From assembly GCF_000485595.1 (NCBI RefSeq), contig NW_014577068.1:904216-936053 (forward strand): DNA of 31,838 nt, read 5' to 3'. Made by a program: the position numbers and the translations under genes. Positions 1 through 31,838 of the stretch are shown here, one piece after another. Each line of letters starts with the position of its first letter. Position 1 is the first letter of the stretch. This DNA is from Priapulus caudatus (Eukaryota; Priapulida; Priapulimorpha; Priapulimorphida; Priapulidae). Under the pieces are notes generated by a model. That model saw only the letters and a program-made list of their open reading frames with translations, was not told the origin of the DNA and did not search any database.

Positions 1-340
1 CTGTACAGGTGAGGAGAGTGAGACCCGAGCTTTGGGTGGGTGAGGAGGGTAGAAACAATTGAGATATGTGTGCGTGAGGGATGTGAAACACGGAGGTCTG
101 TGGTGGTGAGGAGTAGAACCAGCTGAGCAGTTGGAGTGAGGCGAGTGGAAACACTGAGCTGGTGAGATAGTGAAAACCCCTGAGCAGTGGGTGAGAGAGT
201 GAAACATGAGCAGTGGGCGAGGGAGTGAAAACCACTGAGCCGTGCGTGAGGTAAAGGTTTGAAATAATTTAGCGAGGGGTGAAAACCAGTCTGAGCACTG
301 AGGGGGTGAGGGGGTGATAGGGTAAAACCTAGCTTTCAGA
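1..340. repeat. 28-bp minisatellite, copy 1 (GTGAAACCACTGAGCAGTGG type)
   Basis: Degenerate tandem repeat of about 28 bp whose core is CACTGAGCAGTG, a short imperfect palindrome, followed by GGTGAG and GTGAAAC. The first ~150 bp match the sequence just after the scaffold gap (19300-19440) in direct orientation, and the part from about 147 onward matches 15600-15787 in inverse orientation. The many one-base gains and losses between units look partly like read error. No function is evident; it marks the outer edge of inverted-repeat arm A. Confidence 0.85.
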
Positions 341-4149: not shown

Positions 4150-4232
4150 ACTCAGGAGTGTCATAATATATTCAGGAGTGTCATAATATAGTCAGGAGTG
4201 TCATAATATATTCAGGAGTGTCATAATATATC
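4150..4232. repeat. 20-bp satellite (CAGGAGTGTCATAATATA), left block
   Basis: Four to five head-to-tail copies of a 20-bp unit containing GGAGTGTCATAATATA. The same unit in the same orientation forms a larger block at 14011-14312, so the two blocks bracket a 9.8-kb segment. Confidence 0.95.
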
Positions 4233-8191: not shown

Positions 8192-9817
8192 CTGCGGACA
8201 GCGCGTCATACTTGAACATCCTCGCGGTCGCGTGCGCATATCCCGCGGAACTGCGCGTCTCATCCGCGCGCAGCGCTCAGGATCAACAGCAAAGCTGTGC
8301 CACGCAATCTTGTATCATGTCTCTCTGGCTTACACTGGCCATTTAATATCGTAGATCGTATTTCAGCATAATTGAATCAACGGTAGATACATGTTTTTAC
8401 CTCAACCCATTTGTTGGGGTGTATTAGTTATATTATCTTTTATTAATGCGTGCGTGGAGAGACTAACGGAACTTGCGTAGGCAATAAAATGTTTCATCAC
8501 TTCAACACCTTGCCTTTATTTCAACTACCCACCTGTTAATCGTTTAACTTCCGCTCACTTGCACAGTTTTCAATAATTTTTTTTTTAATCTGCCATCATA
8601 TGAGTTGTAAATTCTCTGATTCAATATATATACCAGGTTTTACTGGCGTGTGCATGTCTCGTGAATTCTTTGGCTAACTGGTTAATTAACAGCTTGTTGT
8701 TTTATTTAAGAATTTAGAAAGAAGAAAATTCGTGAGCTGCATGTGTCATTCTGAGACTTCTTTTTTACCCTTTTCTTTTTATTAGGTTTCATTCGTGGCG
8801 GGTTTTTAGGCATGAGAATTTTCCGTGGATTCGCGGATTTCCGGGTGGTTTTCATTTGAGTCATTCTTGAGATTGATGCAAAAGAACTAATAAAAATCTT
8901 GGGGGGGGGGGGGGTAATGCCTACTTTTTTGTCAAAATGTCCTTTCCAAAAACATCTCAACCTGTTCTCGAGCATGCCTTAACCAATGCATTTTGTCATA
9001 CTGAAATGAATTCACGGGGAAAATTTAATAACTGAAGCCTCCTAAACGTGTTAAGCTCAATATTCTAGACTTTCTAAACTCGATTTATTCGGTTGGGTAC
9101 TGGCGTAATCTATGGCTAACCGGTGAATTAATTTTTAGCTGAATGCGTCTGGATTTTATTTAAATCTGGTCCATATATATTCCCTTGCGGCATGGCCCAT
9201 CGGTGAAGTGGAATAATTCTGTATGTCTGCTAGACCCCTACTGTACTGTATGCACGTAGACGCATGCTTGTAAGTGCTCTATGGCATCTATCATTATGAA
9301 ACTGTATAAATATCTGTATAACGGTTATACTGCGAGACTTAAAGTAGCGTTACTAACGCGTTAACTAGCATTAATTAACTAAGTCTATGTTGAACAGTTT
9401 CGTGTTCTCTCTTCTTGCCAGTCTCGATAAATCAACCGGGTCATCATTTTTTATTATGTGTTATATTAATTATTCGTCGTCGTCACGTACTACAGAAATA
9501 CTTTGCGGTCCACAGACAGCCAGAGGCCAAACTAACAAGTTAGTTTTTAAAGTTTTAACAAGTTAGTTTTTAAAGTTTTAACAAGTTTTTCGTTTTTAAC
9601 AAGAAGTAGGTTAGTATTTGAAATACGTATAAACTTAAAATGTTTAATTGCAGCTAATGAAGAAACAATTGTTCATACTTACCTGACATGGGATTATAGG
9701 ACTACAGTAACTATATTACACAATATTCCTGTTTCTAGAAATCGGTAGTATTCATAAGTTTATATTTCGTTTAGCAGTGTAACAAAACCTTAAACTATTA
9801 ATGCGTTGCAATAGTGG

Positions 9818-9889
9818 ATGGCAGGATATCAATACATTGATAGTGAATTTAGATGGCAGGATATCAATACATTGATAGTGAATTTAGAT
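9818..9889 (+). repeat. 35-bp tandem repeat, two copies
   Basis: ATGGCAGGATATCAATACAT begins each unit at 9818 and 9853, a spacing of 35 bp. The inverted counterpart at 16133-16266 has about four units, so the copy number differs between the two arms. Confidence 0.92.
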
Positions 9890-10075
9890 GATTCACTCTC
9901 TCACCCACTGCTCAGTGGTTTCACTATCTCACCCACTGCTCAGTGGTTTCACTCCCTCACCCACTGCTCAGTGGTTTCACTCCCTCACCCACACATACCT
10001 CAATTGTTTCACCCCCTCACCCACCCAAAGCTCGGTGGTCTCACTCCCTCACCTACAGAGATCAATGGTTCAAGT
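9890..10075. repeat. 28-bp minisatellite, copy 2
   Basis: CTCAGTGGTTTCACTCCCTC units at 28-bp spacing (CTGCTCAG at 9908 and 9936). This is the reverse complement of the repeats at 1-340 and 19300-19440, including the variant unit with CCTCAATTGTTTCACC. It adjoins arm B. Confidence 0.92.
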
Positions 10076-11645: not shown

Positions 11646-14010
11646 TTGAGGTTGTCATAACGATTTGCTTGAGTCGCTCTGCCAATGCACGTAGTATCGT
11701 CACATGACTAAATTAACTCTTCGTTTACGGACATTGCCAATGCTAAAAAGCGATATTTAGGTGCACGATATATTGATCGGCTACTTTTAATCCTTAGTAT
11801 TTATGTAGATTTTTTTCGTTATTTTGCGGCTTTTGCTAACATATTACATGGTGGATTTTTTACTCGCCTCTCTCGAAGGAAAAACAGACGCATTTTACGT
11901 GATTTAGTGAAGAGAAAAAAGTACAACTAAATATTTTGTGTCGTACACGACGGCATATTAGTGATGCTAAATTCGCACGTAATGACATCAGAAGTCCCCG
12001 CGTCAAATGACACAACCCACCACGACAGCTCAGTTAGGATGATCAGCGACTGAACTCGGTGATTAACTTCTTCGTGAACTTGTTCTCCATTTGCTGGCGA
12101 TTCTTGCGCGGATTAAATCTGCGCACTGCCGCATGTTTTTTCGGCGTGTAGGTATGCTACTGTACTGCTTGCAGTACGACCAGCTTTCCCCCATCATTAC
12201 TGTCACGACGGAACACGTAACGCGGAAGTCTAAACCGCACACTTCCGGTTTTGTTTCTTGTCGCGTGTCTTGACAGTTCTCGTGCGTCAGAGATCAGTTG
12301 CGCGAGATATGGATAGTGGTTTTGTTTGATTTGTAAACGAGTTTTGTCAATCAGCGCGCTGATATGTGTCAGATGAAATTGTGGTCTTGTGATATTAGTA
12401 TTCAACATTTGACTATAGAGTACATTTGATATGAGGTGGGATTCTATTGCTGGTGATAAATGCATATACGATGTAGTCAATAGAACTGAGCAAATACCCC
12501 CTGGCCTGCTGGTCTGTCTATGTTTGCGTCTCACTGTATGGCCACTGGGCGTCCGCATGTACGCAAATCAAGTAGCAACAGCTCTGAATGCTAGCTACTG
12601 TTTTCCCGTCTGCATATGTTTAAAGGTTATAATGCTGCTAACTGCCTGCTAGTGTTTCATCACATGTGTGACCATCAGTGAGTCCACTGCATGCAGCCCT
12701 CCCCCGTCTTATCCTATATCCGCGTGTTACAGCTGTTTTCGCTGTGGGGTTGATACACACGGTCTTCGCCGGCCACATTTTGGAATGCACGTAAGCTCAT
12801 ATATATATATTTTACGGCCACTATTTACATGATTGCTGGGCTGTAAACGGCGCACCGCAGACGAGTGATGACCGGCCAGCGCTCATGGGTGGTAGACAGT
12901 GGTTTACACCACTACTGCTGGCCGTATAGCCCCGATCACATTGTCGGCAAGTTAAGTCTACTCACGTTCATTTCGCTTCAGCTAAAAAGGAAGGGAGTGG
13001 CTAGCACAGGTTGCCGGCTAGTACATGTATTGCGTGCGCGTCTGCGCGTGATACGTTCGTTTTCGCCGCATTTCTGATCGACTCGTTGTGTGTGGGCCTG
13101 TCTGAATAGATCGACAGTACAGTACAGGGGGGGGGGGAGTGATAACAAATGATTCACGCGTCTGCTATATTGGACTGTGACGTGCTACGGCGTTTTGTTC
13201 CAAACGTGTACTCCATATATGTATGATTACTTTTCACGTTTTTGCGAAGCTGCGCAACTGCCGCTATATTGCAAACGTTTATTCAGTACTTCGTTCTCGA
13301 ACGGATTTCGTCGCGCATGCAGTTATCAAAGATGCATGTTCTCCCCCGCTCGCTTAATTTGCGCACGCGTAAAACTTTGAGCGCTGTAGCCGCTGCTGTG
13401 GTCGGTGTTGAGTGAGGAAATCCTGTGCCTAATGAAACGAGGGTGTTGAAGTAGCGAGTCTGGGCAGTGCTTAGATTCGATCACGTTCATTCTCACTCTG
13501 TCGGGCGCCGGCGGGTCCGGTCTTGTTCCGCTTCGAAAACAGAAACCGAGATGGATGCAGAAAGGTTCAGTCGTGAAGCTCGCAGATGAAGAGTAGATAT
13601 AATATCCTCCTCCCCAGCCTCAGCATCTCTTCCCTGATCAGCGCGCCGACTGTAGGAGACGGAACCATAAGAGCCGTAGCCTCGCGGTATCGGCGCACTA
13701 AATCTAGGGCACATGTCTCGTGGCAGTGTACATATATACATGTGTGATGCTGACCCGACGTCAAACGATGGCGACACCTCATCAGTGTTTCAGATATTTC
13801 TTTACAGCTGATGAGGTTACGCGGTTTCGTTGTAACCGGAGAAGCGTGAATGGCGGCTGCGTTTCATTGTGCGATCTATTGACGCGCTATCGTCAACGAC
13901 TGTATCATATATGATCTTGTATGATTGTGTTGTCATCATTGATATCATGACAACGTACTGCCCCTATGTACAGCATTACAAAATTCACAGAATACGCCTG
14001 TATTGCATAT

Positions 14011-14312
14011 AGTCAGGAGTGTCATGGTATAGTTAGGAGTGTCATGATATATAGTCAAGAGTGCCATGATATAGTCAGGAGTATCATGATATAGTCAGGA
14101 GTGTCATAATATAGTTAGGAGTGTCATAATATAGTCAGGAGTGTCATAATATAGTCAGGAGTGTCATGGTATAGTTAGGAGTGTCATAATATAGTCAGGA
14201 GTGTCATAATATAGTTAGGAGTGTCATGATATAGTCAGGAGTGTCATGATATAGTTAGGAGTGTCATGGTATAGTTAGGAGTGTCATGGTATATTCAGGA
14301 TTGCCATAATAT
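14011..14312. repeat. 20-bp satellite, right block
   Basis: About 15 head-to-tail copies of (A)GTCAGGAGTGTCATAATAT with small substitutions (C/T at position 4, ATAAT or ATGAT or ATGGT inside) and one 22-bp unit. Same orientation as the small block at 4150-4232. It ends four bases before inverted-repeat arm A'. Confidence 0.97.
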
Positions 14313-14316
14313 AAAA

Positions 14317-15787
14317 TTAATTGCTAAAACACGGACACTGCTTCGTAAAACTAGCAACTTTATTTTTCCCATTTTGTGATTTTTACTGATGCAAAGCCGT
14401 ACGTTGCTGCTAACATTCCCTGATATTTATGTCCCTGTGTGAGTGCTAATTGATAGAGCTCTGTCTGTGTATGAGGCTTTGATGTATGACTGCGTCTCGC
14501 TTGTTTCCAAGTTTTTGTTTAAATAATTTACTTGTTGTTTTGAAAATCTCGTGTGGCTGTATGAATGGAAATATTGGCCGCATATTTGCGTGCACAATGC
14601 GTAGTATTGCGAAATCGTATTGACCATCAATGTTACGGTAACATAGTAGGCTTGTAAAACGCGGTGTTTACGACGCAATGCGGTCTCTCATGTGGATGCC
14701 CATGTAATCATTGAGATAAAAGGGTGGTAACTGGTACGCCCTATAACTTTCATTATAAGCAGATATCTCAATAAGAGACAAGGCTGATCGTAGAGCAAGC
14801 GTAAAGGCTGCACATGCTGCCAAGTGGAAGTTGGTTACACAACACTGGGTTATACGCATTGCACATGCGATTTCCCGTTGACACCGCTGAGCGCTGTGTG
14901 CTAGCTAGGCCGCGATCTGTCTTCTAGCTGGGTTGTTATGATACATGTATGGGGAAGGAGGCCGGTTGTTGATCCCGAATCATCCACGGTTACGAGAGTA
15001 CGCGGTCGAAGTGTTGAACGATGACCGCTTAGTAAATAATGGCTGTAAGTGTGACGCTGCCTCTATATGCGGCTGAAGCAGCGGACCGCATGGCTGTATG
15101 TTTATATCGTCTTTGACAAGTATGTGTGATGCCTTTAGACTCAGAGTCGTTGGTTGCAGTTCTTAAAGGTAAGACACCTGCAGCCACAACGACCAACCGT
15201 AATGTCTAACGACATTTTTAGAAAATTAGAAGCTATTGTTTCCAGTGAGCTGTTGCACACGCACGTGATAACGTTGGGCGACAGCCGTAACGACCAAAAT
15301 ATTTAGAATCGTTTTCTTATTCTTTTCTTCCATTCTTATTTCCATTCTTATCAACAACCAATCACAGCCCGTGAAAATATTTTTATCGGCACGTGACAAA
15401 AACATTTCGTAACGAAATTGTCTGCGGCGTGTCTTGACCTAGCTCGCACTGCACTCGCGTGGTAAACTCGGCGAGTCGTACGTAAGTACGGTACTACAGC
15501 CGACAGGGCTACGTGGCTCGTTATTAATGGTGCCGCCTAGCCCCTAGAAACGGCCGTGCATTGTACGACCGTAGAAGCGTATTTAGTCTGAAAGCTAGGT
15601 TTTACCCCTTCACCCCCCTCACCCCCTCAGTGCTCAGACTGGTTTTCACCCCTCGCTAAATTATTTCAAACCTTTACTCACCCACTGCTCAGTGGTTTCA
15701 CTCCCTCGCCCACTGCTCAGTGGTTTCACTCTCTCACCCACTGCTCAGGGGTTTCACTATCTCACCCACTGCTCAGTGGTTTCCACG
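14317..15787 (-). repeat. Long inverted repeat arm A' (right copy)
   Basis: Reverse complement of 147-1586, separated from it by about 12.7 kb. A small local expansion at about 15311-15350 (TTCTTATTCTTTTCTTCCAT and similar) replaces a different short sequence at the matching place in arm A. The outer ~190 bp is the 28-bp minisatellite. No transposase-like frame is present. Confidence 0.88.
15600..15785. repeat. 28-bp minisatellite, copy 3
   Basis: CACCCACTGCTCAGTGGTTT units, inverse of those at 180-340 in register with arm A'. It forms the junction between arm A' and the sequences leading to arm B'. Confidence 0.92.
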
Positions 15788-15850: not shown

Positions 15851-16132
15851 AACAAAGGTAGAAAAACATAGTGAGCAAAAAAGCACAAAAGCAACATAAG
15901 GTAGGAATCTCACCAGATGGCACAAATCCGAACCAATTGTTACTTTGATAAAAAAAAAACACATGAGAGAATAATAGAGACCAACCATTTCATAGAAAAA
16001 ACTCCACAAAGACACAAAAAATAACTCTACCATCCCAAATTCTTTCACTCTGTGACATTATCATGGCTCTATATTATCTTATATCGCTATTTACTACATC
16101 TACTATATATCTACTATCGTTATTTCATTAAA
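15851..16132. other. A-rich unique filler, no gene seen
   Basis: A-rich on the + strand, following the terminal fragment of element C and preceding arm B'. The 77-codon minus-strand frame here is Phe/Leu/Ser-rich, as expected for T-rich DNA, and is not called as a gene. Confidence 0.5.
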
Positions 16133-16600
16133 TCACTATCAATGTATTGATATCCTGCCATCTAAATTCACTATCAATGTATTGAATCCTGCATCTAAAT
16201 TCACTATAAGTATTGATATCCTGCATCTAAATTCACTATCAATGTATTGATATCCTGCCATCCACTATTGCAAGCATTAATAGTTTTAAGTTTGTTACAC
16301 TGCTAAACGAAATATAAACTTATGAATACTACCGATTTCTAGAAACAGGAATATTGTGTAATATAACTGTAGTCCTATAATCCCATGTCAGGTAAGTATG
16401 AACAATTGTTTCTTCATTAGCTGCAATTAAACATTTTAAGTTTACACGTATTTCAAATACTAACCTACTTCTTGTAAAAGAACTAAAAACTTGTTAAAAA
16501 CTTTAAAAACTAAACTTGTTAGTTTGGCCTCTGTGTCTGTGGACCGCAAACTATTTCTGTAGTAACGTGACGACGACGAATAATTAATTTAACACATAAA
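16133..16600 (-). repeat. Inverted repeat arm B', inner block
   Basis: Reverse complement of 9455-9900. It starts with about four copies of the 35-bp unit ending CTATCAATGTATTGATATCC and continues through CTAGAAACAGGAATATTGTG to the GACGACGACGAATAATTAAT edge, where the 1.4-kb insertion begins. Confidence 0.88.
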
Positions 16601-25232: not shown

Positions 25233-25322
25233 AGTTCAAAGCGAGTGTTGCGGTCCAATGAGATTACCCTACCACCAGGTGGCATCATTGACACAGAACT
25301 TGACCTGTCTTTCTCGTTGCAG
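25233..25322 (+). CDS. PACS: PACS exon A (furin-binding region, N-terminal part)
   Basis: Thirty complete codons between TTTACAG and GTAAGA splice sites. The peptide [15 protein letters not shown]...DLSFSLQ matches the first part of the PACS furin-binding region, where vertebrate PACS1/PACS2 have SKR(I/V)LRS-E and end in TFSLQ. PACS proteins are cytosolic sorting adaptors that bind acidic-cluster motifs phosphorylated by CK2, as in furin, and link them to AP-1 for trans-Golgi retrieval. The donor is phase 0 and joins directly to exon B. The acceptor could also lie 2 bases further on (25235), but only 25233 gives the conserved reading frame. Preceding exons are not in view. Confidence 0.92.
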
Positions 25323-26417
25323 GTAAGATTACGAATAATACGTGCTGTTATTTCATGAGAACCAGACCAGTACAGCTACTGTAGTCAGCTTAACCTCGTT
25401 CATATGCCTTATTAAAATATCAAGATTACATGCTATTTTTGTTGTAACTAACATTTAACTAGTCTGTCATTCTCGCGAGGCTGCTTGCATTATCTCACAC
25501 TACAGACAGTGCACACTAGCTAACACATCATGGTTTATCACGGGTTGACCTGTACGTTTAGTTTTCTGTCCTATATGCCAGCCATGCTTTGGTTCATTAC
25601 AAGCAGGACGACGGCTGTAATGTAATAGCTATGCTATGAGCAGTGCATCACCAGACAACTTTGAATAAATTATTTGTAATTTACATGCTTTTGTATCGGT
25701 AGTGGTGTGGGGGGGCGGGGTGGCTGTTTTAGAACCTGAGGCCTCTTCCCTATTTAAAATGGTAACAAAATAGGGGGGTAATCACTTGTAGGGGAATCTA
25801 TGAAAAATATTTGCACTTGCTCTTCATTTGTAGTGCTACACTAGTTGCAGTAACCTATAGAAAACAATCAGCATGGTGAAGGTTTGATTTATCTGTGCAC
25901 ACCATACATTACCATATATAAATAGTTATTGATAAAGCGTTAATTTCTTCTAAAAATGCTTAAGAGAATGCGAGAGCATTAAAATTTGAAATTAATTTTA
26001 GCCGAATAGGCGCAGCATTCACTACCTGTTGATTTGTTGTCATGTAAGTTTAACAACAGAGTAGGTAACCTGGTTAATGTTATCAGACTCTTAGGTCAGC
26101 TCATAGACTGGCAGATAGCAGAACATGGTGTGACTACAAATTAGAGGTGCATAATTTCAATAATGAGACATCAATGTTTAGACTTTGCAACCGCAGCATC
26201 TCTGGACAAGGAAGGGTGATTTCATGGCCTGGATGTGCGTGCCTGGATGCGTGCCTGATTTGTGTGGCAATGACAACTACATCCCAAGAATATGTGCTTA
26301 TTGACAACACATTGTCGCAGCCAGCTGCCTGTACGGAATGCGGGGTGCCTAGTTGGCGGCAGCAAGCCAGCAGGCTCGTATTGATTCCGGCGCTTTTATG
26401 CGATTGTCGTTTTGCAG

Positions 26418-26543
26418 TATCCACACTTTCTGAAGCGGGAGGGCAACGTGTTGCAAATAATGCTGCAGCGGCGGAAGCGATACAAAAACCGAACGATCCT
26501 CGGCTTCAAAACGCTCGCCATCGGTATCGTCAACATGGCCCAG
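26418..26543 (+). CDS. PACS: PACS exon B (core of the furin-binding region)
   Basis: Forty-two codons, phase 0 at both ends, between TTTTGCAG and GTACAA. It encodes [10 protein letters not shown], then [18 protein letters not shown], then [12 protein letters not shown], nearly identical to vertebrate PACS1 and PACS2. This is the most conserved part of the FBR and identifies the gene on its own. The Arg/Lys-rich segment is typical of the family. Because invertebrates usually keep one PACS gene, it is best read as the single ortholog of PACS1 and PACS2. Opposite-strand and other-frame open frames over this exon are shadows. Confidence 0.97.
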
Positions 26544-26639
26544 GTACAACTCACTAATTTATCGTCTACCTCATCATTCAGGGTGCATGTTAAGTGGTTC
26601 AAGCAACATGCATAGCATCTATGCAACTTGTACGTTTTC

Positions 26640-27060
26640 AATATGTGAACTGCACAATGTCCAGGTAACATGTATGCAAGTGAGGTAGTAACGTGCACAG
26701 TAACCAGGTAGCGTATACAGTGCCCAGATAGCATATACAGCCATATAACATATACAGGGTCCAGGTAGCATATGCAGTGTCCAGATAGCATATACATTGC
26801 CCAAGTAATGTATACAGTCTTTAGTAGCGTATACAGTGCCCAGATAGCATATACAGTGGCCCAGTAATATGTAAAATCCTTATGTAATGTGTTGAGTTTA
26901 TATGTAATGTGCGCAGTCCACCCACGTGTGGTGCTCAGTTCTACAGGCAATGTGTGCAGCACCCGGGTAATGTACTCGGTCCACAAGTAATACATACAGC
27001 ACCCAGGCAATGCGCTCGGCCCATAGGGAACGTGTACAGCACCCAGATAATGTGAACATA
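26640..27060 (+). repeat. ~20-bp minisatellite in intron B-C
   Basis: Diverged tandem units of about 20 bp, consensus CAGTGCCCAGGTAGCATATA, roughly 20 copies. Several units keep CCAG|GTA, close to the exon B donor TGGCCCAG|GTACAA, which lies about 100 bp upstream; one unit reads TGGCCCAGTAATATG. A long minus-strand open frame (26396-27157) with a repeating Tyr/Leu/His-rich peptide is an artefact of this array and also crosses exon B. Confidence 0.85.
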
Positions 27061-27421
27061 CATCAATCAGGTTATCTATACGGACAGACTTAGTAATTTG
27101 TACACTGCTAAGGTAACTGCATACACAAACAGCCTGCTTATACTTTAATGGGGGCATCGTTACAAGGAATCATTATGACAGCACTTGATAAGATATTGCA
27201 TGCGTTTTAGTTCCCATGTGATTTCATTGGCTATCGTACAGTACTACCTTAATAACTACTTGGCCCTAACTGCTACAATTACTGTAAAACAATCAACATA
27301 GCAGATTATAGATATCATCGAGAATAGACCTTATAGATTCTCTGTCTTACAGTTACATCCCCATGCGTAGTTTGAAGTGATTAGTAGCTAGGATAGATGG
27401 TGCATGTTTTGCTGTTGGTAG

Positions 27422-27584
27422 GTTCTGCAGCGTCACATGGACAGGGAACTGGACCTTTTCAGTGCTGGAAACTCAAAAGAGAAGGACGAACTCGTTGCCA
27501 AGGTGATGATGCTGTCGCTAAGCAGTCAGCCGGTGGAGCAGGAGGACACACTTCCGCTGCGCAAGAAGCAAGTGTCAGAGACAG
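27422..27584 (+). CDS. PACS: PACS exon C (end of furin-binding region)
   Basis: The exon has 163 nt, phase 0 at the start and phase 1 at the end. It encodes VLQRHMDRELDLFS, then KDELVAKVMMLSLSSQPVEQ and ends in VSET. After exon B this gives NMAQ-VLQ, matching NMAEVMQ in vertebrates, and SLSSQP is the family hallmark closing the FBR. This fixes the acceptor at GTTGGTAG (27421) rather than the second AG at 27430. The donor is GAGACAG|GTAAGA. The frame stays open past the donor to a TAG at 27875-27877 through the tandem repeat, so a read-through or downstream-donor product is possible. Confidence 0.93.
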
Positions 27585-28305
27585 GTAAGAGTGATCCCTC
27601 GATGACACACCTTGAGACAGGTGAGAGTGGTCCCTCGATCACACACCTTGAGACAGGTGAGAGTGGTCCCTCGATCACACACCTTGAGACAGGTGAGAGT
27701 GGTCCCTCGATCACACACCTTGAGACAGGAGAGAATGGTCCCTCGATCACACACCTTGAGACAGGTGAAAATGGTACCCCGATGACACACCTTGAGACAG
27801 GTGAGAGTGGTCCCTCGATCACACACCCTGAGACAGGTGAGAGTGATCCCTCGATGACACACTTTGAGACAGGTTAGAATGGTCCCTCGATTACACACCA
27901 TGAGACAGGTGAGAATGGTCCCTCGATGACACACCTTAAGACAGGTTAGAATGGTCCCTCGATGACACACCTTGAGACAGGTGAGAGTGGTCCCTCGATG
28001 ACACACCTTGAGACAGGTGAGAGTGATCCCTCGATGACACACCTTGAGACAGGCTAGAATGGTCTCTCGATGACACACCTTGAGACAGGTGAGAGTGATC
28101 CCTCGATGACACACCTTGAGACAGGTTAGAATGGTCCCTCGATGACACACCTTGTGACAGGTGAGAATAGTCGTTCAATGACACACCTTGAGACAGGTGA
28201 GAATGGTCCCTCGATGACACACCTTGAGACAGGTTAGAATGGTTTCTCGATGACTCACCTTGAGACATGTGAAAATAGTCCCTCGATTACACACCTTATG
28301 TTTCA
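27578..28305 (+). repeat. 36-bp minisatellite repeating the exon C splice donor
   Basis: Twenty units with exact 36-bp spacing and no indel. The donor-position dinucleotides fall at 27585 + 36n up to 28269. Unit type: GAGACAG|GTGAGAGTGGTCC, then CTCGATGACACACCTT. Twelve units keep GTAAGA or GTGAGA after CAG (one GTAAGA, eleven GTGAGA), two have GTGAAA (one of these after CAT), four GTTAGA, one GCTAGA and one lacks GT. The first unit is the genuine exon C junction. Read in the exon frame each unit adds 12 residues of the type TGESGPSITHLE until a TAG in the ninth unit. Confidence 0.97.
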
Positions 28306-28669
28306 CTTGTACGCAAACATCATCAACCTTCAAATGAGAATTCTGTTAACATGCGCTGATCGTAGTAAGCTGATGAGAGGGTGATGGTTTATGGTGGCTT
28401 TACTAATAACTGCTGATCGCTACAGGTGCAGGGTTTGAATTTTATCATAGCACCAGCAGCACGTGTAGTGGTTGATCTTCTCACTTGCTACGCTGCCTCG
28501 AATATTGGTTGATTTTCAAAGCAGTAAAACCCTGCGGCTACGCTAGGGAGCTTTGTAGCTCCTATACATCCCACTACACGTGCGTATTTTATCCTCCGTT
28601 TCTCGCACAAAAACGCAGTTGAAGTTATACAATCTCTGCTTAAACCCAACGCAACACTTGCGTTGACTT
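28306..28669. other. Intron C-D middle part, no feature seen
   Basis: Unique intronic sequence between the donor minisatellite and the pyrimidine-rich array. No cryptic exon recognised. Confidence 0.5.
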
Positions 28670-29400
28670 GTTTCTTGCTTTGCACTTCTTACTTTTTTGC
28701 TTTGCTTACATCTTGCTTACATCTTGCTTATTTTTTGCTTTGCCTACATCTTGCTACTTTCTTGCTTACTTTTTGCTTTGCTTACTTCTTGCTTACTTTT
28801 GCTTAACTTTTTTGCTTGCTTACTTCTGGCTTAGCTTCTTGCTTTATTTTTCTGCTTTGCTTAGCTTCTGGTTTACTTTTTGTTGCTTAAATCTGCTTAC
28901 TTTCCTATTTTGGCTTTGCTTACATTTGCTTCGCCTTACTTTTTTGGCTTTGCCTAATCGTTGCTTACTTCTTGCTTACTTTTTGCTTTTGCGCTAGCAG
29001 TTTGCTTACTTCTTGCTTTTACTTTTTTTGGCTTGCTTACTTCTTGCTTACTTCTTGCTTACTTTTTGCTTTGCTTACATCTTGCTTACTTCTTGCTTAC
29101 TTTTTGCTTTGCTTACATCTTGCTTACTTCTTGCTTACTTTTTGCTTTTCTTACTTCTTGCTTACTTCTTGCTTACTTCTTACTTTGCTATATCTCGACT
29201 TCTTGTACTTTGCTTGTTACTTCTTGCTTTGTTACTTTTTGCTTATTTTACTGCTTGTGCTATACTTCTTCTTTAGCTTCTTCTTCGGGCTGACTTCTTA
29301 GCTTACTTCATATTCTTGCATTTACTCTGCTATTTCCTTACTTCTTACTTCTTGCATAGTTCTTGCTTACTTCTTGCTTTCCCACTTGCACTTACTTCCA
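28670..29400 (+). repeat. Pyrimidine-rich tandem array before the exon D acceptor
   Basis: About 0.7 kb of CTTGCTTACTT and TTTTTGCTTTG units, partly organised in a ~38-bp higher-order unit (GCTTTGCTTACATC at 29068 and again about 38 bp on). The transcribed strand is almost purine-free, rich in UCUU-like and CUUGCUU motifs, and lies just upstream of the duplicated 3' splice site. The Leu/Phe/Cys-rich open frames over it are artefacts. Confidence 0.93.
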
Positions 29401-29410
29401 TTACAAGAAG

Positions 29411-29526
29411 TTTGACATGTTTGACCCCTCCTCCCTCTCACCCCTCAGATGGCCAACCCAATGCAACACTTGCCTTCTCCTACAAACAATTTGACATGTT
29501 TGACCCCCCTCTCTCCCTCCCTTCAG
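29411..29526 (+). promoter_or_regulatory. Duplicated 3' splice site (78-bp tandem duplication)
   Basis: TTTGACATGTTTGACCCC, a pyrimidine tract and CCTCAG|ATGGC occur at 29411-29453. The same arrangement recurs 78 bp later (29490-29531) with CTTCAG|ATGGC. Both AGs are preceded by strong pyrimidine tracts. Because 78 is divisible by 3 and the interval is open, use of the upstream AG (29448) would add 26 residues, beginning DGQPNATLAFSYK, in frame before DGYSDLEE. Confidence 0.85.
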
Positions 29527-29661
29527 ATGGCTACTCAGACCTGGAGGAGGGATGGACTCGTCGCCGGCGAGGGCCGCAGTGAAGTGAGCCGATGATGGAT
29601 GTTGAGGCGACGGCGCCCGAGGAAGAGGTACCAGCGACGTGACAGGGCCTTGTGCCGGAGG
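29527..29661 (+). CDS. PACS: PACS exon D (acidic then basic linker), frame disturbed
   Basis: Joined to exon C in phase 1 it reads ET-DGYSDLEEG, comparable with the DNYSEEE-type acidic stretch that follows the FBR in PACS proteins, the region where CK2 phosphorylation regulates cargo binding. In that frame a TGA follows at 29579. Acidic coding (DVEATAPEEEVPA) resumes in the same frame at 29598, and a basic stretch (RRRRPRKRYQRRDRALCRR) is open in the next frame and leads to AGG|GTACGT. At least one frame change is needed. The next exon is recognisable, so sequence error seems more likely than a dead gene, but this is inference. Confidence 0.65.
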
Positions 29662-30200
29662 GTACGTGACGCGCGGGGCGGTGACGCGATACGTTGATGC
29701 GCAGGCCGCGGTGACACGACAGCAGAGGGTAGGTGAGCGGTTGGCGCGGATGCATGACGTGGTAGGTGACGGGTTGGCGCAGTGATGCGGGGTAGGTGAC
29801 CGTTGGCGCGGAACGAGTGATGCGTGGTAGGTGACCGTTGGCGCGGTGATGCGTGGTAGAGTGACCCGTTGGCGCGGTGATGCGTGCGTAGGTGAACCGT
29901 TGGCGCGGTGATGCGTAAGGTACGGTGACCTGTTGCGCGCAGTGATGGCTGGTGTAAGTTGACGCTTTTGGCGGCGTGATGGCGTGGTAGGTGACCGTAT
30001 GGCTGCAGTGATGCGATGGTAGGTGACCGTTGGCATGCAGGTGATATGGTGCGTAGGTGACCGTATGCTGGCGGTGATGCGTGGTCGAGGTGACGGTTGC
30101 CGGGCAGTGATGCGGGGTAGGTGGACGTGGCGCAGTGACGCTGGGGTAGGTGACCCGTTGGCGCGGTGAGGCGGGTTAATGTGACCGGTTGACACACCGT
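29662..30200 (+). repeat. ~29-bp GC-rich minisatellite at the exon D donor
   Basis: Begins at the AGG|GTACGTGACGCG junction and settles into units of the type GTGATGCGTGGTAGGTGACC followed by GTTGGCGCG, about 18 copies. Each unit contains GTAGGTGAC, a donor-like sequence. One-base indels among neighbouring units are frequent. The long minus-strand frames with repeated His/Arg/Pro/Thr peptides (29401-30237) are artefacts of the array. Confidence 0.92.
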
Positions 30201-31318
30201 AATGCCGCGTTAGAGCTAGAGTGTGCCGGCGGCACATCAGTGCTGCAACGATGAGTCGCAGTACGTCCTCGACGATCTCACTACACGATAATCACACCGC
30301 GCTGGTGCAGGTCTTCTCGATACACGGATTACATCCACGCGCTTAATATTAAAACGCAGAGTTGTAAAGGTTAAATTTGCAGCTTATAAAGCTTCACAGA
30401 CCAGTCACATGTCTACTTTTCTATCACACAATCCGTGTAGAATGTAAAATGAGTACTTATTTCCAACTTACTGACAGGTGTATATTGTGATAAAATGAAA
30501 TATTATGAATAATTAAAGCTGTTCAGGTTAAATATGGTCATGCATAGCTAATCATGTAATGGAAAAAAATAATAGCACATGTATTTCGCATGTTGCATGT
30601 ATTATGTATTAGCATCACCATTGGCAATACACAGCCTACAGTGCTGGCAAGTAGAAAATCGTGTAGAAATCATGGGTAATCTAATAGGATAGGAAGTAAC
30701 AGGTGATGGCTACCTCTAGCTCACTCTGTCACTGTTTCGTGATATTAATTTGCTGTAGTCGGTGAGGTAATATTTTAAGCTGCGCAGAAAGTCGTTATAT
30801 CTCTAACCTGTTTCGGCAGTGAGTGCCGCCTGTGTTTTCAGCAGGTGCCTATGTGAATTTTTTAAACCACGGAAAAAATATGTGTTACGCTTGGGGTGCG
30901 TAAAAGATGCTTTGATGTTATTGGCTGCAACGCTTGATTTGTTATTCGTGGGCAGGGTAATTTTAATAAGGGATTTCGATTGGCATCCGCTGAACATTAT
31001 AGGTGTGTGGGTTGAAATCCGTCTCTGTCGGCAGACGTACGAACAAATCCTTTCAGCAGCTGTCAGCTGCATCCTTTTCTAGAGAGAGTTTACACAGGTG
31101 GTACAAGCTTTATCTCACGCCTGCGACTGTATGTTTAGGCCCAAGGCGTTCTAAAAATCTGGGAGATAGAGCACCAGGTGCTGCAGAGGCCTTTATCACC
31201 TGCTATTGGTAATTTTTAGGCCCAACCGGCGTCTAAAAACCTGGAGTTTCGCGCGTGGCTGGCACGTCATGCGTCGTCACACTGCGACTTGTTTTTTTTT
31301 TTCGCGCCCGCGGTCTAG
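30201..31318. other. Intron D-E remainder
   Basis: Mostly unique intronic DNA with no recognised exon. A ~30-bp motif, TTTAGGCCCAA..GGCGT..CTAAAAA..CTGG, occurs twice at about 31134-31163 and 31214-31245. It ends in a T-rich tract and CGGTCTAG, the exon E acceptor. Confidence 0.6.
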
Positions 31319-31550
31319 CCGGCAGGCCGTCGGAACCTGCAGGCAGAAGCTGGAGTGGCGTTGCTGAAGCGCTTCAAGGTGTCGCCGAGAGGCTGCAGGA
31401 GGCACGACCAGGATGCGTTGAGGCGTGCACCAGCAGGAGATCGAGGACCCTGCCTGTTTGCACGAAGGCTGCGAGGACCTGAGCGACTACCGGACCGCGA
31501 GATGGACACCATGAGGCCGCATTTCTTCGCCACCTAAACCTAGTGCTCCG
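31319..31550 (+). CDS. PACS: PACS exon E (VALLKRFKVS region), several frame shifts
   Basis: After GGTCTAG the frame opens through PAGRRNLQAEAG into VALLKRFKVS (31355-31384), the conserved PACS segment downstream of the FBR. Further family matches are spread over different frames: QQEIED near 31434 and EDLSDY near 31473 in one, EMDTM near 31499 in the first, and ISSPPKPS at 31521 followed by (G)CTC CG in the second, corresponding to the STPKPSLR motif of PACS. The donor is CTCCG|GTAATT, splitting the Arg codon. Three or more indels in ~200 bp suggest unpolished sequence. A decayed copy is possible but less likely given the intact exons upstream. Confidence 0.85.
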
Positions 31551-31838
31551 GTAATTGCAACGCACCTAAACTATGTCTTCACTTATGTCACGGCACCTTA
31601 AACACTAGTCTCGGCCACTATGTCACACACCTAAAGCCTATCTCGCGGTATGTCACGCACGTCGCTAAACCTAGTCTCCACTATGTCTCCGCAGCACTGG
31701 ACTAAACTAGTCTCTCGGTATGTCGACGCGACCAAGATAAAACCTATAGTCTCTCACTATGTCACACACCTAAAACCTAGTCTCCACTATGTCACCGCAC
31801 TAACACGTCTACTATGACACCTAACGTCTCCACATATG
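31531..31838 (+). repeat. ~28-bp minisatellite starting inside the end of exon E
   Basis: Units such as CACCTAAACCTAGTCTCCAC then TATGTCAC. The first half of the unit is the last ~20 nt of exon E (ccACCTAAACCTAGT.CTC) and the second half is intron start. Some units keep a donor-like CGGTATGT (31646-31653 and 31716-31723); others have CACTATGT with the GT lost. At least nine degenerate copies, continuing to or past the window end. Confidence 0.9.

What the first reader, a model, noticed from the sequence alone, without database searches (positions are those of the whole stretch)
26544..31838. Consecutive PACS introns each begin with a minisatellite carrying the 5' splice site
Introns after exons C, D and E all open with a tandem array whose unit includes a donor-like GT sequence located at or overlapping the exon-intron junction. 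Intron B-C has a weaker version ~100 bp in. The units differ in sequence and length (20, 36, 29, 28 bp), so this is not one transposon spreading. It looks like a process that repeatedly seeds tandem duplication at splice donors. I recall, without being able to verify, a description of intron minisatellites overlapping donors in amphioxus; if that is the same phenomenon, four in a row in one gene is an extreme case.
Basis: partly seen in the sequence, partly recalled or inferred. Interest (0 to 1): 0.87.

Follow-up and report, generated by a model that had tools for sequence, protein, structure and literature searches.

The report
Repeated splice sites in priapulid introns
In the penis worm Priapulus caudatus some introns begin with a short stretch, made of the last few letters of the exon plus the splice-start signal, copied head to tail many times, a kind of repeat described before in amphioxus.

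Summary
The window is Priapulus caudatus (Priapulida), not amphioxus. One claimed array is exactly as described: 27578-28297 is 20 indel-free copies of a 36-bp unit holding the last 7 exon bases plus the donor (18 of 20 keep GT). The other three are weaker: one starts 117-160 bp into its intron, two lie beside exon ends blurred by sequence errors. Intron 1 has none, and none of seven downstream PACS donors lies in an array.

The phenomenon still reaches beyond this gene. Three consecutive CAGGTRAG at 15-45 bp spacing occur 949 times genome-wide; read backwards 9 times; with GT changed to CT 94 times. In 5 of 21 other listed loci, protein homology runs up to the first donor. In three of these, splicing from copy 1 gives a continuous domain or alignment.

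Best reading: "mirage" minisatellites, tandem duplications across exon-intron junctions, previously described in amphioxus. The exon-proximal donor is used; the rest is passive intron. Whether donors are mutation hotspots or merely tolerant places is unresolved: the genome-wide count of single donor words never came back.

The parts
25233..25322 (+). PACS exon (C2 domain), donor CAG|GTAAGA; its intron 25323-26417 has no array
   Evidence: C2_PACS_N E 5.2e-7; exon bounds; no array
26418..26543 (+). PACS exon, donor CAG|GTACAA (weak)
   Evidence: C2_PACS_N E 5.7e-23
26661..27060 (+). Degenerate array of about 20 bp, some units CCAGGTA-like, 117-160 bp into the intron; junction not part of it
   Evidence: TRF 26704-26870; repeats 26654-27059; profile
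27422..27584 (+). PACS exon ending ...QVSET, last 7 bases GAGACAG belong to the array
   Evidence: Homologs; P0202
27578..28297 (+). 36-bp x 20 donor array; each unit is 7 exon bases + donor + 27 more intron bases
28688..29379 (+). Pyrimidine-rich arrays (11/27/38 bp) before the acceptor of the same intron
29395..29531 (+). Doubled acceptor: two copies about 78 bp apart, both ending CAG|ATGGC (CAG ends at 29448 and 29526)
   Evidence: families D12 and D13, 82% alike
29527..29627 (+). PACS exon DGYSDLEE...; start secure, end uncertain because of frameshift errors
   Evidence: P0202 residues 192-209 at 29523-29576
29728..30187 (+). Array of about 29-31 bp, unit GGTAGGTGACC...; a degenerate unit possibly at 29663
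31320..31513 (+). PACS exon ...ALLKRFKVS...EMDTM, frame broken by errors, end uncertain
   Evidence: tblastn with relatives
31534..31838 (+). Units of about 27-29 bp (CACCTAAACCTAGTCTCCACTATGTCA), no convincing donor in the unit
   Evidence: profile hits; repeats D6, D8; scores

Best explanation
These are splice-junction minisatellites of the 'mirage' kind. A short duplication spanning the end of an exon and the start of its intron (here 7 exon bases plus 29 intron bases) was expanded by slippage or unequal exchange into a tandem array. Shown: the array starts inside the exon and each copy carries exon tail plus donor; unit sequences differ between loci; tandem donor words are far commoner in the Priapulus caudatus genome than two control patterns; in several genes only the exon-proximal copy gives a continuous protein. 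Inferred: the spliceosome uses that copy, so all further copies are intron, the protein is unchanged, and the array can grow and mutate freely. The extra donors look passive: in the 36-bp array they are no better conserved than the rest of the unit.
For: Array edge 7 bases inside the exon, 20 copies. RefSeq-type model P0202 joins QVSET to DGYSDLEEG, that is copy 1, as frog PACS2 does at the same place. Genome-wide 949 triples against 9 for the pattern read backwards and 94 for GT changed to CT. Exon homology up to the first donor in 5 of 21 other loci. Copy 1 gives continuous peroxidase (68.2 bits before, 105.2 after joining), whole homeodomain (57 of 57 profile positions) and gap-free SNF2 alignment; other copies of the peroxidase, homeodomain and PDZ genes shift frame or bring stops. 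Donor letters vary like the rest of the unit: mean 1.22 against 1.33 deviating copies, rank 20 of 36. Acceptor of the same intron also doubled.
Against: No RNA data were available. In 16 of the 21 other loci no exon end could be shown, and in one of them (L036) TRF finds no donor array at all. Only one of the four claimed PACS arrays is secure. Arrays with no relation to a donor are common in this genome (98 arrays of period 10 or more in 231.8 kb, 80.9 kb of it N), so some overlap with donors is expected by chance. Origin by slippage or exchange is not tested.
Confidence: 0.75

Rival explanations
1. A donor-specific mutational process: something about 5' splice sites in the germ line (for example transcription- or R-loop-linked breaks, or the donor word acting as microhomology) seeds tandem duplication there more often than elsewhere. 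This adds a cause to the best explanation rather than replacing it.
For: 949 triples of CAGGTRAG against 94 of CAGCTRAG. With 14 against 9 single sites in 145.8 kb of held sequence and 11,325 CAGCTRAG genome-wide the excess per site is about 6-fold by matches. Neighbouring introns of PACS affected.
Against: By arrays on contigs C1-C112 (22 against 7, counted by hand) the excess per site is only about 2-fold; 40 of the 100 listed matches come from two duplicated arrays; the normalising single count was never returned; placement in PACS alone is weak.
Confidence: 0.3
2. Neutral overlap: this genome is rich in minisatellites, and an array that happens to cover a donor survives only if the exon stays whole, so its edge ends up at the exon. 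Donors are neither targets nor users of the arrays.
For: 39 clusters of tandem triples in 145.7 kb of background, 550 of 145,727 positions. Intron arrays away from donors exist in PACS. No sign of selection on the extra donors.
Against: The excess over the CT-changed pattern, as far as it can be normalised.
Confidence: 0.45
3. The extra donors are functional: many U1-binding sites at the intron start strengthen exon definition or protect a long intron from premature polyadenylation.
For: Twelve near-equal strong donor words in one array.
Against: Donor letters are no better conserved than the rest of the unit; seven downstream donors of the same gene do without.
Confidence: 0.08
4. The 36-bp array is coding: 36 is a multiple of 3 and alternative donors add 12-residue repeats to PACS.
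For: The frame stays open from the exon to 27874, through the first eight units.
Against: Five in-frame stops inside the array; 6 synonymous to 18 nonsynonymous distinct changes against 25 to 83 possible; P0202 and relatives lack the repeats; other units are 23 or 32 bp.
Confidence: 0.05

Closest known systems
Amphioxus 'mirage' minisatellites (Adh3, globins BflGb6 and BflGb9, TnC, PGBD5); passages of PMC3087553 and PMC3902484 seen; the 2002 Adh paper is not held
   Different: Found in a priapulid (Ecdysozoa); whole-genome counts; unit here 36 bp with 20 copies; no data on polymorphism or somatic change
Intron gain by tandem genomic duplication (PMC4974935, PMC2395259: only listings with abstract openings seen)
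   Same: Tandem duplication that carries splice signals
   Different: Here the intron is an existing PACS intron whose start is repeated; no new intron is shown
Introner elements (recalled, no call)
   Same: Many introns of one genome affected
   Different: Introners share sequence between loci; here units differ from locus to locus

Membership tests
Mirage minisatellites | Tandem repeat whose unit spans an exon-intron boundary | tested here: met
   PACS 36-bp array; five other loci
Mirage minisatellites | Either the 5' or the 3' boundary can be repeated | tested here: met
   Donor array, and acceptor doubled in the same intron; one intron only
Mirage minisatellites | Normal splicing is kept | tested here: inconclusive
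   Copy 1 gives continuous proteins and is used in P0202; no RNA seen
Mirage minisatellites | Copy-number polymorphism and somatic instability | not testable with these tools
   One assembly only
Introner or other mobile element | Same sequence at many loci | tested here: not met
   No further copy of the PACS arrays elsewhere in the window; units in the list differ, apart from two duplicated pairs
Coding repeat expansion | Open frame and synonymous bias along the array | tested here: not met
   Five stops in the array; 6 synonymous, 18 nonsynonymous distinct changes

The most novel reading that the evidence does not exclude
In Priapulus caudatus the 5' splice site is itself a hotspot of tandem duplication: a process tied to transcription or to the donor word repeatedly seeds junction-spanning minisatellites, in neighbouring introns of one gene and in unrelated genes. 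Splice-junction minisatellites would then be a recurrent feature of animal genomes rather than an amphioxus oddity, and a standing supply of exon-end-plus-donor units from which new exon ends or introns could arise.
Probability: 0.3. Interest if true: 0.84.

Novelty: new member of a known kind. Interest (0 to 1): 0.62.

Why it matters
In the papers found here, junction-spanning minisatellites were described from single amphioxus genes. Finding them in a priapulid, with genome-wide counts and recognisable genes, makes them something that can be compared between phyla. They also provide natural introns with a dozen near-equal donors in a row, a ready test of how the spliceosome chooses among identical 5' splice sites and of whether intron starts are mutation hotspots.

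Tried and rejected
Mobile element: rejected, units differ between loci. Coding repeat: rejected. Amphioxus origin: rejected, Branchiostoma belcheri PACS1 is no closer than frog or sea spider, then settled by P0202. Rfam and tRNA scans of the window: nothing. Scans of bacterial/archaeal and viral contigs for two other window repeats, to find the organism: nothing. Exon 26418-26543 junction as a member of the 20-bp array: not detected. Degenerate unit at 29663: E=0.2 only. First PACS exon, intron 1 and seven downstream donors: no array over the donor; the exon for P0202 residues 39-63 was not found in held sequence, so its donor is unexamined. L040: its ORF gave no Pfam family and no convincing solved-structure match. 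Of the 21 other loci, ORFs of ten were given to Pfam; the other ten of the first fetch had only short ORFs or N upstream and were not scanned, nor was L046. Myosin locus L034: the stretch beyond is mostly N, no next exon found. PDZ splice: next exon read by eye, not confirmed by a profile, and the exon itself shifts frame. Genome-wide Pfam search for unselected exon ends: not completed. Single count of CAGGTRAG: not completed. Third control CAGGARAG: not answered.
Full report
What the window is. The + strand from 25233 encodes PACS (C2_PACS_N). A search with joined exons found P0202, an 809-residue predicted PACS2-like protein of Priapulus caudatus on a contig of 1,604,166 bases, the length of contig C8 on which the window lies. 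It is identical to the window's exons at 25233-25322, 26418-26543 and 27422-27584, apart from residues at alignment edges. The animal is a priapulid, not an amphioxus.

The observation. The array after exon 27422-27584 is exact: 20 copies of 36 bp without an indel, starting 7 bases inside the exon. Copies 5 and 14 have lost GT and copy 20 the G before it; only copy 1 has GTAAGA; 12 of 20 copies are strong by a recalled donor matrix. The other arrays are real, but their relation to the donor is weaker. The array of about 20 bp starts 117-160 bp into its intron and the junction is not one of its units. From about 28.7 kb on, arrays show 16-18% indels (other arrays of the window reach 14%), exons break frame, and 4,002 N follow right after the window (assembly gap or withheld, I cannot tell). 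The exon ends near 29.6 and 31.5 kb are therefore not fixed, and P0202 continues from this part with a 12-residue piece at 30614 that looks like a patch (my reading). Seven downstream donors do not lie in arrays; one has a 3-copy 27-bp array 34 bp in, without a donor in its unit. A placement test in this gene alone is weak.

Both ends of one intron. The intron with the 36-bp array also has its acceptor doubled: two copies about 78 bp apart, 82% alike, both ending CAG|ATGGC, at 29448 and 29526, behind about 700 bp of pyrimidine-rich arrays. Published mirages affect either boundary too.

Genome-wide. CAGGTRAG three times at 15-45 bp spacing matches 597+352 times; the tool's control, the pattern read backwards, 3+6 times. 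With GT changed to CT it matches 61+33 times, backwards 1+6, against 5738+5587 single CAGCTRAG sites. The listing shows 100 of the 949 matches and stops on contig C112. By hand these are 22 places, PACS included, and 40 of the 100 matches belong to one duplicated pair on C8. The changed pattern has 25 places in all, 7 of them on C1-C112 (by hand); at least two of those also hold CAGGTRAG copies. Scaling 22 places by matches gives about 200 in the genome, by contig share (my estimate, a quarter) about 90; both are extrapolations. The genome-wide single count of CAGGTRAG was asked for 14 times and never answered. In 145.8 kb of held sequence outside the PACS arrays there are 14 CAGGTRAG and 9 CAGCTRAG. 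Per site the excess over CAGCTRAG is then about 6-fold by matches and about 2-fold by places, both rough. For comparison, 550 of 145,727 background positions start such a triple with any 8-mer that is not low-complexity.

Other genes. I fetched 20 of the 21 other listed places, later the 21st. In 5 of 21 a coding homology runs up to the first donor: homeodomain (L025; weak before splicing), haem peroxidase (L029), SNF2 helicase like ATRX (L030), myosin (L034, weak: Pfam E 1.7e-4 under its cut-off score, solved-structure E 0.004) and a PDZ domain like InaD-like protein (L041). In the other 16 no exon end was shown: two have N upstream, four are two duplicated pairs, one (L036) has no donor array by TRF, and the rest gave no homolog or were not scanned. 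Unit lengths in the five, in the order named, are 42, 23, 23, 32 and 27 bp by TRF, so the frame is not kept as a rule.

Which copy is used. Peroxidase: joining copy 1 to the next acceptor raises the profile score from 68.2 to 105.2 bits; copies 2, 3 and 5 shift frame and copy 4 brings stops. Homeodomain: copy 1 gives the whole 57-position domain; copies 2 and 3 insert a stop. SNF2: copy 1 continues the ATRX alignment without a gap (I read the acceptor by eye; copies 2 and 3 are out of frame by arithmetic). PDZ: copy 1 reads on into DPLNPRN, the other copies tested bring stops, not checked by a profile. PACS: P0202 and frog PACS2 agree on copy 1, although the frame stays open through eight units.

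How it probably works. A duplication across the exon-intron junction leaves a complete exon and donor in front, so the protein is unchanged and all further copies are intron; the array then turns over like any minisatellite. In the 36-bp array the donor letters vary as much as the rest (mean 1.22 against 1.33 deviating copies, rank 20 of 36 circular windows), and changes show no coding constraint. The junction-spanning unit is shown; use of copy 1 is strongly suggested in four genes (PACS, peroxidase, homeodomain, SNF2); origin by slippage or exchange is inferred. Whether donors are favoured targets or merely tolerant places is open.

What is known. Amphioxus mirages are the same kind of thing (passages of PMC3087553, and of PMC3902484). 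Ten literature searches listed no paper whose title or abstract opening reports such arrays in Priapulus; I did not read the listed papers beyond passages of three (the third PMC3152781), and most subscription papers, the founding Adh paper among them, are not in that library. I file it as a new member of a known kind, in a distant phylum and with genome-wide counts.

Noticed in passing
window 123-251, 9892-10053, 15677-15783: A 28-bp minisatellite (ACCACTGAGCAGTGGGTGAGGGAGTGAA) at three places and in both orientations; beside two of them (9817-9890, 16129-16258) a 34-35-bp array (GATGGCAGGATATCAATACATTGATAGTGAATTTA), as if a dispersed element carries both.
   Followed up: partly
window 4152-4231 and 14007-14313: The same 20-bp minisatellite unit (TCAGGAGTGTCATRATATA) 10 kb apart, so this one does occur at more than one place.
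   Followed up: partly
window 28688-31838: Stretch before a run of N with many indels in arrays and broken reading frames in exons; looks like unpolished sequence.
   Followed up: partly
window 28643-28664 and 29455-29476: A 22-bp piece (AACCCAAYGCAACACTTGCSTT), 91% alike, on both sides of the pyrimidine-rich arrays, perhaps a remnant of a third acceptor copy.
   Followed up: no
L022 and L023 (contig C3), L027 and L028 (contig C8): Two pairs of near-identical donor-word arrays 5-6 kb apart on the same contig, flanks alike too: local duplications or unmerged haplotypes.
   Followed up: no
L025 1101-1206 and L045: A 42-bp donor array splits a homeodomain after EFH; the gene resembles Drosophila rough (name recalled, no call).
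   Followed up: partly
L002 10000-base stretch, window coordinates 40985-41099: A 3-copy 27-bp array (TTCGTCTTCGTTTTCTGCTGCGCTTCA) starts 34 bp after another PACS donor, without a donor in its unit.
   Followed up: no
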